Below, piece by piece: positions 13,357 to 21,214 of a stretch of DNA of 64,000 nucleotides (the first letter of the stretch is position 1; each line of letters begins with the position of its first letter). The position numbers and the translations under genes were made by a program. Origin of the DNA: Nitrospirota bacterium (GTDB taxonomy: Bacteria; Nitrospirota; Leptospirillia; Leptospirillales; Leptospirillaceae). The notes beneath the pieces were generated by a model. It searched no databases. It was not told the DNA's origin and saw only the letters and a list, made by a program, of their open reading frames with translations. The DNA lies in the NCBI GenBank assembly GCA_021785195.1, contig JAJYGC010000009.1:1-64000 (forward strand). The letters are read 5' to 3'.

Positions 13357-13683
13357 ATGAGAAGCTTATATCATCCTTCCGAGACGGATTTTCGTCTTCC
13401 GAACATTCTGCATGCGCTGAGTGATCCGATCCGGTTGTCGATCGTAAGGGAACTGGCCCGAACAGGAGCCCGATCATGTGGAACCTTTGATTTGCCGGTT
13501 GCAAAATCGACTGCATCGCACCATTTCCGAATCCTTCGGGAAGCGGGGATCATCCACATGCATCCGATGGGATCTCAATACGTAAACTCTCTTCGGCGGA
13601 CGGAGATCGACTCCCGCTTTCCAGGCCTGCTTGAGGCCATCCTGAGGGCAGAGGAGTCCGTTCCTTCCAAGGAGGCCTTGTGA
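13357..13683 (+). CDS. ArsR-family transcriptional regulator (no metal-binding cysteines)
   Basis: Winged helix-turn-helix repressor of 108 residues. The core is LHALSDPIRLSIVRELARTGARSCGTFD, the recognition helix follows in KSTASHHFRILREAGIIHMHPMGS, and the wing is short. Two features differ from metal sensors: only one cysteine is present and no ELCVCDL-type ligand pair, so it probably senses an organic or redox signal. It is divergent from the MDR dehydrogenase gene, with a candidate operator between them, and likely represses both. The ribosome site (GGTGGA) is moderate. Confidence 0.85.
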   Translation: MRSLYHPSETDFRLPNILHALSDPIRLSIVRELARTGARSCGTFDLPVAKSTASHHFRILREAGIIHMHPMGSQYVNSLRRTEIDSRFPGLLEAILRAEESVPSKEAL

Positions 13684-13802
13684 GGAGGACTGAGGGAGCT
13701 TTGGGGGTGATGGGCCTCCGAATTTTGTTTTTCTCCGCACGAAGTGTTTGTTTGAGTACATTATCGTAGGATATGCCTATTGATGATGGGGGGGAGAAAA
13801 AG

Positions 13803-13826
13803 CCTGATCTTTCGGGAAAAATCAGG
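13803..13826. promoter_or_regulatory. Inverted repeat upstream of sigma-54 promoter (candidate activator site)
   Basis: CCTGAT (13803-13808) and ATCAGG (13821-13826) are perfect inverted copies with a 12-base spacer. The right arm ends 11 bp before the sigma-54 promoter. Enhancer-binding proteins bind such dyads, though usually farther upstream. Confidence 0.35.
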
Positions 13827-13837
13827 GGATTGCTGTT

Positions 13838-13853
13838 TGGCACGGAAGATGCT
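13838..13853 (+). promoter_or_regulatory. Sigma-54 (RpoN) type promoter
   Basis: TGGCACGGAAGATGCT matches the -24/-12 consensus TGGCACG-N4-TTGCW at all but one fixed position. GG and GC are spaced by exactly 10 bases. The expected transcription start is near 13864. No protein gene follows at short range, but a strong terminator does (13979-14020). Confidence 0.6.
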
Positions 13854-13863
13854 TCTTAACTTT

Positions 13864-14020
13864 GCACCAAAGGAGTCACGGCGCTCCCCCGATGGAGCCC
13901 AATGGTACTTCTTGGTGGCGGGACGGACCGCATGGTAAGTGGGCGTTCGTGGTTCCATGGGGGTCACGAATGGCGGAGAAGCCGGATGGGCCTGAGCAAT
14001 CGGGGCTGTCCGGCTTTTTT
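13864..14020 (+). ncRNA. Predicted sigma-54-dependent small RNA, about 157 nt
   Basis: The span runs from the predicted start 12 bases past the sigma-54 promoter to the end of the T-run of an intrinsic terminator. Short internal dyads are visible, for example GGAG and CTCC around 13872-13887. An open frame starting near 13892 runs past the terminator to 14074, so it is unlikely to be the product of this transcript. No known RNA family is recognised. The call rests on promoter-terminator spacing only. Confidence 0.45.
13979..14020 (+). terminator. Intrinsic terminator
   Basis: AAGCCGGA (13979-13986) pairs with TCCGGCTT (14009-14016), and the stem runs into six T (14015-14020). The 22-base loop can form a short inner GCC/GGC pairing. 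This is one of the clearest terminators in the window and no protein gene lies directly before it. Confidence 0.75.
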
Positions 14021-14381
14021 ACTGCCTGGATTTTCCGGGATGCCGTCTGGGAAAAGGTGATCATAACGTCCTGATTTGATCCAGATCCTTCCCGGGGCAT
14101 ATTTTCTCCGAAATCTTTCTAACTCAAGATGACTGGAATTCCTTCCGCTTCTTCTATCATGGAGCAGGGGCTTCCCGGGCCACTGCCGCAAACACCCTGA
14201 CCTCCCGGATCATTATCTGTGGCTTCCTGTTCTGGATTTCAAGTGACCCCGGTCCAAAAAATGGATCAGCCCCTCCCCCCAAATTGGGTGGGAGTCAGTT
14301 TACCTTTTTTGTAATTATGTTTACTAATTTGTATTGAAGATTCCTGCCTCCGGAGTTTTAAGGTTTGTGAGAAATAGGAGA

Positions 14382-14419
14382 AAATGGCTTTGGACAAGAA
14401 GATTGCCCGAGAGCCATTT
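14382..14419. promoter_or_regulatory. Inverted repeat upstream of second sigma-54 promoter
   Basis: AAATGGCT (14382-14389) and AGCCATTT (14412-14419) are perfect 8-bp inverted copies with a 22-base spacer. The right arm ends 11 bp before the promoter at 14431, the same spacing as at the first sigma-54 promoter. Candidate activator-binding dyad. Confidence 0.35.
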
Positions 14420-14430
14420 ATATTCCGGAC

Positions 14431-14446
14431 TGGCAGATGAGTTGCA
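14431..14446 (+). promoter_or_regulatory. Second sigma-54 (RpoN) type promoter
   Basis: TGGCAGATGAGTTGCA matches the -24 core TGGCA and a perfect -12 TTGCA, with GG and GC spaced by 10 bases. The expected start is near 14457. A hairpin of TCCCCT (14461-14466) and AGGGGA (14478-14483) would lie at the very 5' end of the RNA. No gene or terminator follows at short range, so what it drives is unknown. Confidence 0.5.
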
Positions 14447-15300
14447 CCCTTTTGATGGGATCCCCTCGGATAGCGGAAGGGGAGGGTTTGTAGTGCAAAT
14501 GGTTCCCTTTACGTCAGATCGGCGAAATCGTCCGGTTGAAGGCTGTTGAACAGTCCACAATCAAGGTGGGTTGTCTTTTGGAGGCAGGGGGCGAACTTGA
14601 ACTGGTTGCGTTATGGAACGGCTCCCTGAATGCTTTTATCCCCTTCCCGACGGTGGTTCAATTGTTCTGCTACAAACCTTGGAAATATGATCTGTTGCAA
14701 GAATGCGCGAACAAGTGAAGGGTCTCACCGTCCGAGGGTGTTGTCCCAAGGTCTTGGCCCCTCGGGGGTTCAGCGTTCTCGAAGAATGCCTTATTTCCGA
14801 CAGGCCATCTGCCAAGAGCGAATTTGGCTGAAATAAGAGAGAGGTCGAGAAATGAAGGGGGTGTGGTCAGGATCAGCTTTTCTTGGTTTTTCTGGAAAAT
14901 GAGGAAAGGAAATTGCCAAGGTGCCTGCGTTCCCAAAAGGGTTCATCCCATCAGCCTGTCGGAGCGGAGCTCCTTCCAGTCCTGATCAGGAACCATCGGG
15001 TGAGACGGACGAAAACCCAGGATTCGGTTGGGGAAATTGGGACCAGGGTTCTTTGTGAATGGAAAAGGGGGCAAGGTGATTCGGACTCGGGATGAGGGAC
15101 GGGAGTTTTGCCGAAAGAGTGATTGGACGCAGCCACACCAGGATTCACAAATGATCTCCAAGATTCATGATCCCTCAAGCAGGGTCCGATCCCGTTTCAG
15201 TCAGATTCAATTGTTTTGTGAGCGGTTTGAGGGTCTGGTAGGGGGCAGGGCGGAACGATCGGGTCACAATAAATGGGTGAAGTAGCCGGAGGAGGCTCAG

Positions 15301-16500
15301 ATGGACGGATTGCACGAATCTGGCAGCTCCGGTGCCGTGTTTGTTGATACGACCCTTCGCGAGGGGGCGCAATCTCCCGGGGTTTTTTTTGACCAACCGA
15401 CCAAGATCGCGTTTGTCAGTACCCTGTCGGCCCTGGGGGTGGGAGAGATCGAAATTGGAGCTCCCTGCCTGGGAGCGGAAGAAGAAGAGGATTTAAGGAC
15501 ATTAATCCATCTTCCGGTTTCTGCCCGCCTTTTTACCTGGAATCGGGCACTGGAAGAGGATCTGGCGGCTTCTCTCAGGCTCGGTGTACAGAAGGTCCAT
15601 ATCTCTTTCCCTGTTTCGGATCAGCATATCCATTCCGTTCTCCGAAAATCCCGTTCCTGGATCCGGGACCGTCTTGTAAAGCTTGTGTCGTTTGCCCAGA
15701 GGGAGGGGCTGGCTGTTCAGGTCGGATTCGAGGATGCCAGTCGGGCCGATTGGGAGTTTTTGAAGGATCTGGGGGGGGAATCCCGGATGGCGGGTGTGGA
15801 GAGAATCCGCTACTGCGACACGGTCGGTTGCCTGGATCCGATCAGGCTGAAGGAACAGATAGAACGATTCAGGGAGATCGGTCTTCCGATCGAGATCCAT
15901 TGCCATAACGATCTCGGAATGGCAACGGCCAACACGGTCTCAGGATATCAGGCCGGAGCCTTGTTCTTGAGTACGACCGTTTCGGGTGTGGGGGAGCGTG
16001 CCGGGAACGCATCGATGGAAGAAGTGGCCTTTGCTCTTGAATATTCCCTTGGTCAATCGACCGGGGTCCAGCTGACGCGACTGGCAGCAATGGGGCGGTG
16101 GATCCATCAGGTCATGGGAAGGGCCCTTTCTCCTTATCGCCCAATCCTGGGCTCCCGTGTCTTTCATCATGCCTCGGGGATCCATGTGGACGGAGTCCTC
16201 AAGAATAGTGAGAACTATGAGATCTATCCACCTGAGGTCGCTGGTCTCAAACGAAAGATTCATGTGACGCACATGACCGGCCATGCGGGTGTTCGAAATG
16301 TTCTGGAACGGATGGGTTACTCACCTTCTCCAGAAATTCTGGAAAAGCTCTGGCCCATCGTCCGGCGAGAAGGAGTTGTCCGGCGAGGGATTGTTCCTCC
16401 GCAGGTCATTCTGGAGATTTTCCTGAAACTGCTGGATGAGCGGTCGGGAATTCCCTCAAATTTTTTTCGGCAAAACATCGTCAGGGAAACCGAATCATAA
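15301..16500 (+). CDS. Homocitrate synthase/2-isopropylmalate synthase family protein, NifV-like
   Basis: Claisen-condensing enzyme of the HMGL/DRE-TIM family, 399 residues. The metal and substrate motif DTTLREGAQSPGV lies at about residues 14-26, the metal-binding histidines are in IEIHCHNDLGMA, and the loop GVGERAGNAS is the family glycine-rich signature. Length and the single catalytic domain without a LeuA regulatory domain fit NifV homocitrate synthase, which makes homocitrate for the nitrogenase cofactor. No nif gene is adjacent, so a role in another 2-oxo acid elongation is possible. Start ATG 15301 has GGAGGAGG 6 bases upstream. Confidence 0.8.
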   Translation: MDGLHESGSSGAVFVDTTLREGAQSPGVFFDQPTKIAFVSTLSALGVGEIEIGAPCLGAEEEEDLRTLIHLPVSARLFTWNRALEEDLAASLRLGVQKVHISFPVSDQHIHSVLRKSRSWIRDRLVKLVSFAQREGLAVQVGFEDASRADWEFLKDLGGESRMAGVERIRYCDTVGCLDPIRLKEQIERFREIGLPIEIHCHNDLGMATANTVSGYQAGALFLSTTVSGVGERAGNASMEEVAFALEYSLGQSTGVQLTRLAAMGRWIHQVMGRALSPYRPILGSRVFHHASGIHVDGVLKNSENYEIYPPEVAGLKRKIHVTHMTGHAGVRNVLERMGYSPSPEILEKLWPIVRREGVVRRGIVPPQVILEIFLKLLDERSGIPSNFFRQNIVRETES

Positions 16501-20013: not shown

Positions 20014-20256
20014 TTGGAAACTTCGCGTTTTCGGCACATGATTGATGGGGAAACGCTGAATTTGGAAGGGTTTGTCCCGATCCCACAATTGGATTTGATC
20101 ACTCTGCTCCATGACTCCCCTCTCTGGCCGTCTTGTGTCCTCTGTTCAGATTACCGTAAAACGGTCGTCTTTCATTTGGAGAGAGTAAATCTAATTTACA
20201 CTGGGTGGGTTGAGGAGGTCATTGTTGGAAACAGGAAATACCGTCATGTGGAGTAG
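20014..20256 (+). CDS. Possible small protein upstream of the sigma-54 activator
   Basis: An 80-codon open frame from TTG that ends 11 bases inside the next gene. It contains a cysteine pair (SCVLCSDYRK) and a hydrophobic strand VVFHLERVNLIYTGWVEE. The start is uncertain: GGGGA lies close before the TTG, and the frame stays open back to 19933. It may be a real partner of the activator, or a frameshifted remnant of a lost sensory domain. No family is recognised. Confidence 0.3.
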   Translation: METSRFRHMIDGETLNLEGFVPIPQLDLITLLHDSPLWPSCVLCSDYRKTVVFHLERVNLIYTGWVEEVIVGNRKYRHVE

Positions 20257-21214
20257 TGCTTCAGAATCCTATCAAAAGGCACTTCGAAGTCTGGAGATTT
20301 TTTCCCGGCATGATGTGCCGGTTGTGTTGGAAGGGGAGACCGGAACTGGCAAGGAGCTCTTTGTGGAAGCCCTTCATGCTCGTTCCCAGCGGGCATCCGG
20401 TCCACTGATTGCGGTCAATATGGCAGGGGTGCCAGGAAGCCTGTTTGAAAGCCAGTTCTTTGGATATCGCAAGGGAGCGTTCACAGGAGCCCAGGAAAAC
20501 TGGGCGGGTTTTTTTGGCGCGGCCGATCGAGGCACCTTGTTTCTGGACGAGTTCAATTCGATGAATCCGGATTTGCAGGCCAAGTTTCTCCGGGTCCTCG
20601 AGACACGGACCTATCTTCCGGTAGGGGATGTCCGTCCCCGGAGATCTGACGCCCGGATTGTCCTGGCCACCAACATTCCCCTCCAGACCTTGCGGGAAAC
20701 TGGCCGGATCCGGGAAGACCTGTTTTTTCGCCTTCAGGCCCACCGGATCCGGATCCCTCCGTTAAGGGAGCGGCTCCGGGATCTGCCCGAGTTGGTGGAT
20801 TCCCTGATCCAGCATTTCTCCATTCGGTACCGAATGAAGGCCATGGAGGTCGGTCCCGGGGTGATGGATGCCCTTGCCGCCTATCACTGGCCCGGAAATG
20901 TCCGGGAGTTGTCCGAACGGATCTCTTCGGCAATGCTGCACTCCACGGCAGGTCCCCTGACTGTCCCCCTCCTGTTTCCGGATGATGAAGATGCCATTTT
21001 CCCTCCTTACTCCATTGCCCGGGAAACCTGGGAGAACGCCTATTTTGACGGGGTGTTCCGGGTGACGGAGGGAGATCCGGGAAAAGGGCGAAGGATTACG
21101 GGGCTTTCTGAGACGACCTACCGCCGCAAAATACGACGATACAATAAAAAAAACCTCCTTGAAACCGTGAGTGACAGCCACGATCGCCTTGATTATTTTG
21201 ATAAACTGCCCTAA
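20246..21214 (+). CDS. Sigma-54-dependent transcription activator without sensor domain
   Basis: Enhancer-binding protein of 322 residues that would use ATP to open sigma-54 promoters. The AAA+ domain fills residues 10-240: Walker A GETGTGKE at 30-37, the sigma-54 contact loop GAFTGA at 77-82, Walker B GTLFLDEF at 96-103. A Fis-like helix-turn-helix is likely near the C-terminus (RRITGLSETTYRRKIRRY). There is no receiver, GAF or PAS domain, as in PspF. The start is uncertain: ATG 20246 has AGGA 9 bases upstream; TTG 20225 has a stronger AGGAGG. Two sigma-54 promoters lie 6 kb upstream and are candidate targets. Confidence 0.85.
   Translation: MWSSASESYQKALRSLEIFSRHDVPVVLEGETGTGKELFVEALHARSQRASGPLIAVNMAGVPGSLFESQFFGYRKGAFTGAQENWAGFFGAADRGTLFLDEFNSMNPDLQAKFLRVLETRTYLPVGDVRPRRSDARIVLATNIPLQTLRETGRIREDLFFRLQAHRIRIPPLRERLRDLPELVDSLIQHFSIRYRMKAMEVGPGVMDALAAYHWPGNVRELSERISSAMLHSTAGPLTVPLLFPDDEDAIFPPYSIARETWENAYFDGVFRVTEGDPGKGRRITGLSETTYRRKIRRYNKKNLLETVSDSHDRLDYFDKLP

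What the first reader, a model, noticed from the sequence alone, without database searches (positions are those of the whole stretch)
13803..14020. Sigma-54 promoter driving a predicted small RNA
TGGCACGGAAGATGCT at 13838 is a near-consensus -24/-12 element with exact GG-N10-GC spacing. It is followed about 125 bp past the expected start by a strong intrinsic terminator, with no plausible protein gene between. The enclosed transcript of about 157 nt has no family I recognise. A dyad (CCTGAT...ATCAGG) ends 11 bp upstream. Sigma-54-dependent small RNAs are rare and usually regulatory.
Basis: partly seen in the sequence, partly recalled or inferred. Interest (0 to 1): 0.75.

Follow-up and report, generated by a model that had tools for sequence, protein, structure and literature searches.

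The report
Orphaned nitrogenase (nifH) promoter and leader
The "small RNA" is most likely the leftover on-switch and regulatory leader of the nitrogenase gene nifH, stranded when this bacterium lost the nitrogenase genes at this spot; a leader with the same terminator stands in front of nifH genes in related bacteria.

Summary
Promoter, terminator and dyad are real. But the element is best read as the promoter and 5' leader of nifH, orphaned by loss of the nif structural genes, not as a dedicated small-RNA gene. (1) A NifA-type site TGT-N10-ACA lies 93 bp before the -24 box; 6 of 10 family nifH promoters have one at 81-93 bp. (2) The terminator core GGCGNNGAAGCCG...CGGCTTTTT occurs once in this 1.41-Mb assembly, here, and at 14 places in 12 of 20 family genomes, all 14 directly before nifH. 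(3) Downstream, 14285-15278 is the PII-ANTAR spacer plus decayed ANTAR and Rop-like genes, then intact nifV, the order found in same-genus genome G001. An open nifA is present elsewhere in the assembly. In relatives the leader looks like an attenuator with two hexaloop hairpins, the second overlapping the terminator, probably served by the cluster's ANTAR protein. Against: the leader body is barely alignable, a covariance model of nifH leaders misses it with default filters, and G001 has contig ends exactly between arsR and nifH. Whether the stranded leader still acts as an RNA is unknown.

The parts
13357..13683 (+). ArsR-family regulator, left flank; the equivalent gene is cut after 29 codons at the end of contig C235 of same-genus genome G001
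   Evidence: Pfam HTH_20 / HTH_5; G001 match 97% over residues 1-29 at a contig end
13745..13760 (+). NifA-type upstream activator site TGTTTGTTTGAGTACA (TGT-N10-ACA), 93 bp upstream of the -24 box
   Evidence: exact TGT-N10-ACA at 81-93 bp in 6 of 10 family nifH promoters; 8 such sites in the whole 64-kb window
13803..13826 (.). dyad CCTGAT...ATCAGG between activator site and promoter; terminator-like on the minus strand; role unknown
13838..13853 (+). sigma-54 promoter TGGCACGGAAGATGCT, here read as the nifH promoter
13918..13931 (+). hexaloop hairpin GCGG[GACGGA]CCGC, candidate first ANTAR-type hairpin (loop G1..G4..A6), though not at the position of the family's first hairpin
   Evidence: family first loops are GNNGNA in 13 of 13
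13972..13983 (+). hexaloop hairpin GGC[GGAGAA]GCC overlapping the 5' arm of the terminator, equivalent of family GGC[GCTGAA]GCC
13975..14020 (+). intrinsic terminator (attenuator) hairpin and T-run
14285..14463 (+). relic of the PII-ANTAR intergenic region of the nif cluster
   Evidence: alignment of 14285-14450 to G001 contig C204; 38-bp 89% block at 14426-14463
14431..14446 (+). second sigma-54 site TGGCAGATGAGTTGCA, promoter of the former ANTAR-Rop-nifV operon
   Evidence: a site of at least 10 of 12 about 50 bp 5' of the ANTAR gene in 5 of 8 family loci, G001 included
14464..15278 (+). decayed ANTAR and Rop-like (PF05082) genes
   Evidence: local alignment score 89 against at most 45 in 60 plain shuffles, global z 6.3; 73% identity over 680 aligned columns in 77 blocks; families of the intact G001 copies
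15301..16500 (+). homocitrate-synthase-like gene nifV, intact
   Evidence: 87% identical to G001; TIGR02660 best family at 388 bits, below its cut-off of 463; dN 0.074, dS 1.25 against G001

Best explanation
The element 13745-14020 is the NifA/sigma-54-dependent promoter and 5' leader of nifH, orphaned when the nif structural genes between it and the ANTAR-Rop-nifV operon were lost. In relatives with intact clusters it most likely works thus: NifA bound at TGT-N10-ACA activates sigma-54 polymerase; the nascent leader forms a terminator before nifH; under nitrogen-fixing conditions an antiterminator, probably the ANTAR protein encoded in the same cluster, binds two hexaloop hairpins, the second of which uses the 5' arm of the terminator, and lets polymerase into nifH. 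Shown by sequence: promoter/UAS/terminator geometry, association of the terminator core with nifH in 14 of 14 places in relatives, decayed nif flank here, an open nifA. Inferred: homology of the whole leader, a deletion event, ANTAR control, and that the orphan is now a relic making at most a short terminated RNA.
For: Terminator core pattern: 15 matches in 21 family genomes, one of them this locus and the only one in this assembly, reversed control 0 in all 21; 14 of 14 others are directly 5' of nifH, ATG 50-54 nt after the matched T-run, sigma-54 site 121-135 nt upstream in the 13 where it lies on the contig, 134 here. UAS at 93 bp here and at 81-93 bp in 6 of 10 nifH promoters. Right flank: PII-ANTAR spacer, decayed ANTAR and Rop-like genes, nifV, in the order of G001, whose contig C204 (nifH, four nitrogenase-component genes, a NifB-like gene, PII) overlaps the ANTAR-nifV contig C37 by 141 identical bases. 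Left flank: G001 contig C235 ends inside arsR and carries a MOT1-type molybdate transporter gene; a 30-39% identical relative lies upstream of nifH on the same strand in 8 of 10 family loci, the other two having little upstream sequence. NifA frame open in this assembly. Family leader: first hairpin with covariation (27 double-change cells, 0 of 500 shuffles as high), both hexaloops GNNGNA. Short-type ANTAR genes are in 11 of the 12 relatives that have the attenuator and in 3 of the 8 that do not.
Against: The leader body is not clearly alignable: local alignment beats all 100 shuffles for only 2 of 5 nifH leaders tested (5 of the 10 held), and 2 to 107 of 383 other window pieces score as high. 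The covariance model of ten nifH leaders misses the site with default filters; with filters off it is the best match in 741 bases but at only 7.6 bits, E 0.048, less than hits elsewhere in the window (9.3 bits). G001 has contig ends exactly between arsR and nifH, so that junction is unseen. Bases 14021-14284 are unassigned; no nifH remnant detected there. The core pattern was written after looking at both sides. The covariation counts come from an alignment fitted to the structure, and the number of pairs with double change (10, mean 7.7) is reached by 52 of 500 shuffles. Loops are GNNGNA, not the published A1/G4 ANTAR loops. In the window the hairpin at the place of the family's first hairpin has loop CCCGAT; the GNNGNA hairpin lies elsewhere.
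Confidence: 0.87

Rival explanations
1. A dedicated sigma-54/NifA-dependent trans-acting small RNA, unrelated to nifH.
For: Strong fold (z -3.64), good promoter, strong terminator, no tested ORF with a family, NifA present.
Against: Same geometry and terminator core stand before nifH in relatives, 14 of 14 places; no homologue of the 228-base stretch in 20 family genomes at a convincing E-value (best 0.017); right flank is a decayed nif cluster.
Confidence: 0.05
2. The orphaned leader still has a job (compatible with the best explanation): a NifA-induced, terminated RNA whose hexaloops sequester an ANTAR antiterminator encoded elsewhere in the genome, as EutX/Rli55 is said to do for EutV.
For: Two GNNGNA hexaloop hairpins are present (10 of 383 pieces tiling the window have two); the nifA frame is open; the terminator hairpin is still strong although its sequence differs from the family's. 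Relatives G006 and G011 carry two nifH copies, so a second nif cluster could lie in the unassembled part.
Against: No ANTAR gene found in the 64%-complete assembly and the local one is decayed; the position-matched first loop is lost.
Confidence: 0.06
3. Leader of another NifA operon, or chance coincidence of motifs in decaying DNA.
For: The sigma-54 motif alone is expected 0.2 times per 64 kb by chance; the leader body is weakly similar at best.
Against: UAS spacing, terminator core and both flanks agree.
Confidence: 0.04

Closest known systems
NifA/sigma-54 nifH promoters (TGT-N10-ACA and GG-N10-GC; both consensus forms seen in passages of PMC3912193)
   Same: Both elements at the family spacing; NifA encoded in the assembly
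   Different: No nifH downstream at this locus
ANTAR-controlled leader attenuators (NasR/nasF, AmiR/amiE, EutV/eut; passages of PMC3369931 and PMC8934654)
   Same: Leader terminator; two hexaloop hairpins with G at loop position 4; second hairpin overlaps the terminator 5' arm; ANTAR protein encoded in the nif cluster of relatives
   Different: Loop position 1 is G, not A; G at 1 and A at 6 kept in 13 of 13 first and 14 of 14 second loops; 64-79 nt from the first loop to the second hairpin, while the cited EutV work says 20 nt more linker abolishes antitermination; no binding evidence
Geobacter GnfR (called a nitrogen fixation response regulator in a PMC7962754 passage; its ANTAR domain and role in nif antitermination are recalled, that paper is not held)
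   Same: From memory, ANTAR antitermination of nif genes already proposed there
   Different: Other phylum; leader not compared here
EutX / Rli55 (RNA said to sequester the ANTAR protein EutV; PMC8934654 passage)
   Same: A free, terminated RNA with ANTAR-type hexaloops would resemble it
   Different: No sequestration evidence; ANTAR gene decayed here

Membership tests
NifA/sigma-54 nif promoter | GG-N10-GC -24/-12 element | tested here: met
   13838-13853, 11 of 12 consensus positions
NifA/sigma-54 nif promoter | TGT-N10-ACA about 80-150 bp upstream (distance range recalled) | tested here: met
   13745-13760, 93 bp before the -24 box
NifA/sigma-54 nif promoter | NifA and sigma-54 in the genome | tested here: inconclusive
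   NifA met; rpoN not found in a 64% complete assembly
Family nifH leader attenuator | terminator core GGCGNNGAAGCCG...CGGCTTTTT 121-135 nt after the sigma-54 site | tested here: met
   134 nt
Family nifH leader attenuator | whole-leader match to the covariance model | tested here: not met
   no default-filter hit; 7.6 bits, E 0.048 in 741 bases with filters off; so described as an orphaned, diverged relative, not as a full member
Family nifH leader attenuator | nifH 50-54 nt after the T-run | tested here: not met
   no nifH downstream, the reason it is called orphaned
ANTAR-target leader | two hexaloop hairpins with A at loop position 1 and G at 4 | tested here: not met
   G at 4 met, G instead of A at 1, in relatives and here
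ANTAR-target leader | second hairpin overlaps the terminator | tested here: met
   13972-13983 overlaps 13975-14020
ANTAR-target leader | bound by an ANTAR protein | not testable with these tools
   needs a binding assay
Rfam RNA family | score over gathering threshold | tested here: not met
   0 matches in the window

The most novel reading that the evidence does not exclude
Loss of the nitrogenase genes turned a nifH attenuator leader into a free-standing NifA/sigma-54-induced RNA that titrates an ANTAR antiterminator (or NifA) acting on a second nif cluster: a small RNA born from an orphaned leader by gene loss.
Probability: 0.06. Interest if true: 0.75.

Novelty: new variant of a known kind. 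Interest (0 to 1): 0.5.

Why it matters
It replaces a speculative small RNA by a testable statement: in 12 of 20 other genomes of this bacterial family nifH has a conserved intrinsic terminator between promoter and gene, and 11 of those 12 encode a short ANTAR antiterminator, so nitrogenase would be switched both at initiation (NifA) and by attenuation. The GNNGNA hexaloops would widen the published ANTAR target rule. The window itself shows how a nif cluster decays: regulatory DNA and nifV outlast the structural genes.

Tried and rejected
Rfam at gathering and at E up to 10: only matches below gathering score (Vault, snoRNA and the like), rejected. DNA search for the element in 40 relatives and in 20 family genomes at E up to 10: best non-self E 0.017, treated as chance. 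Protein gene in the element: no Pfam match for five ORFs tested. Six-frame comparison of 13690-15300 with nine nif loci: output cut by the tool, so not all of it was seen; nothing convincing in what was shown beyond the 14431 promoter block. tblastn of G001 ANTAR, Rop-like, ThiF-family and solute-binding proteins and of a PII protein against the window: no convincing match; the ANTAR/Rop relic only showed at DNA level. Genome-contig scan with NifV kept 80 loci, all at most 37% identical, and did not help. Covariance model of the nifH leaders: weak or no hit, counted against. Papers: nine searches, read as listings, some of them capped, plus passages of five papers: none describes a nifH-leader attenuator in these bacteria; the library lacks most subscription papers, so this is not proof that none exists.

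Full report
What is there. The site TGGCACGGAAGATGCT at 13838-13853, the hairpin-plus-T terminator ending at 14020 and the dyad at 13803-13826 are as described. The predicted 157-nt RNA folds better than all 200 shuffles (z -3.64) and reaches no Rfam gathering score. The promoter motif alone would turn up 0.2 times per 64 kb by chance, so the case rests on context.

Context upstream. A perfect TGT-N10-ACA lies at 13745-13760, 93 bp before the -24 box; the window has eight such sites in all. In ten nifH promoters of the same bacterial family the exact motif is at 81-93 bp in six (90, 93, 81, 93, 92, 93), at 24 bp in one and absent in three. The assembly holds six strong sigma-54 activators, one of which passes the NifA equivalog cut-off (556.8 against 528.85 bits). 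rpoN was not found in this 64%-complete assembly; 18 of 21 genomes have it, the other two without being G006 (96% complete) and G011. In ten relatives where both were found, an ANTAR gene lies about 6-7 kb from rpoN on the same contig; that ANTAR gene is missing here as well, which fits a gap.

Context downstream. The stretch 14285-14450 aligns with the spacer between the last PII gene and the ANTAR gene of G001 (for 14021-14425 alone the local score is 40 against at most 37 in 100 plain shuffles), and a 38-bp block at 14426-14463 is 89% identical. It contains a second sigma-54 site at 14431; 5 of 8 family loci, G001 included, have a site of at least 10 of 12 about 50 bp before the ANTAR gene. 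The stretch 14464-15278 is a decayed ANTAR plus Rop-like gene pair (score 89 against at most 45 in 60 plain shuffles). nifV follows intact (dN 0.074, dS 1.25). In G001 the contig that starts at nifH codon 18 runs through four nitrogenase-component genes, a NifB-like gene and PII and overlaps the ANTAR-nifV contig by 141 identical bases. So, compared with G001, about 18 kb from nifH to PII is missing here, and what remains on its left is the promoter in question. The two NifH-family matches in this assembly are partial or weak (best 30 bits, over 40 of 271 positions, against 398-446 bits for full NifH in 9 of 12 family relatives).

The nifH leader. The ten nifH leaders compared run from the sigma-54 site through a structured leader to an intrinsic terminator, then to nifH. 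The pattern GGCGNNGAAGCCG-N15..45-CGGCTTTTT, written after comparing the leaders with the window, has 15 matches in 21 family genomes and none in the reversed control. One is this locus, the only match in this assembly; the other 14, in 12 genomes, are all directly 5' of nifH (14 of 14). The sigma-54 site is 121-135 nt before the core in the 13 where it lies on the contig, 134 nt here. This is the strongest single result.

Likely mechanism in relatives. The first leader hairpin covaries (9 of its 15 pairs show double changes; over the whole structure 27 double-change cells, 0 of 500 shuffles as high; but the count of such pairs, 10, is reached by 52 of 500, and the alignment was fitted to the structure). 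Its hexaloop is GNNGNA in 13 of 13 complete leaders, and a second hairpin GGC[GCNGAA]GCC, in 14 of 14, overlaps the 5' arm of the terminator. This is the layout of ANTAR-controlled leaders (passages of PMC3369931, and PMC8934654), but with G instead of A at loop position 1 and 64-79 nt from the first loop to the second hairpin. A short-type ANTAR gene (frame of 198-247 residues) is found in 11 of the 12 relatives with the attenuator; the exception, G004, has only the rpoN-linked one, and its contig ends about 1.2 kb after nifH. Of the 8 relatives without the pattern, 3 have it too: G001 (nifH start unassembled), G020 and a fragment in G015. ANTAR antitermination of nifH is therefore an inference, not shown. 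In the window the two loops of this kind are GACGGA (13918-13931) and GGAGAA (13972-13983); 10 of 383 pieces tiling the window have two such hairpins, so this is weak support.

Results against. The leader body is hardly alignable (2 of 5 leaders tested beat all shuffles, and 2 to 107 of 383 other window pieces score as high). The covariance model of ten nifH leaders misses the site with default filters and gives only 7.6 bits with filters off, below unrelated hits elsewhere in the window. Under the stricter filters used for many genomes it finds leaders in 12 of 118 genomes of the phylum, all in this family, most of them the ones it was built from. The arsR-nifH junction of G001 lies between two contig ends. 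Bases 14021-14284 are unexplained.

Verdict. The element is best read as an orphaned nifH promoter and attenuator leader. If transcribed it would yield a short terminated RNA, and whether that RNA does anything is open.

Noticed in passing
window 20246-21213 (+): A sigma-54 activator with GAFTGA but no N-terminal receiver domain found by Pfam, encoded about 6 kb downstream (Sigma54_activat, E 1.1e-53). Its target is unknown.
   Followed up: partly
window 15301-16500: nifV is intact and constrained against G001 although its operon partners ANTAR and Rop-like are decayed; it scores below the NifV equivalog cut-off and may serve another pathway.
   Followed up: partly
L162 (G001:C235) 5289 (-): The MOT1-type molybdate transporter gene of G001 has an 11-of-12 sigma-54 site with a TGT-N10-ACA 132 bp upstream; the gene has no match in the window.
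   Followed up: partly
G001, G002, G003, G004, G005, G007, G008, G009, G010, G012: A second, longer ANTAR protein (open frame 415-453 residues) lies about 6-7 kb from rpoN in these ten relatives; function not examined.
   Followed up: no
window 13803-13826: The dyad is a good terminator-like hairpin for the minus strand; I saw no minus-strand gene with a known family reading towards it, but did not search for one systematically.
   Followed up: no
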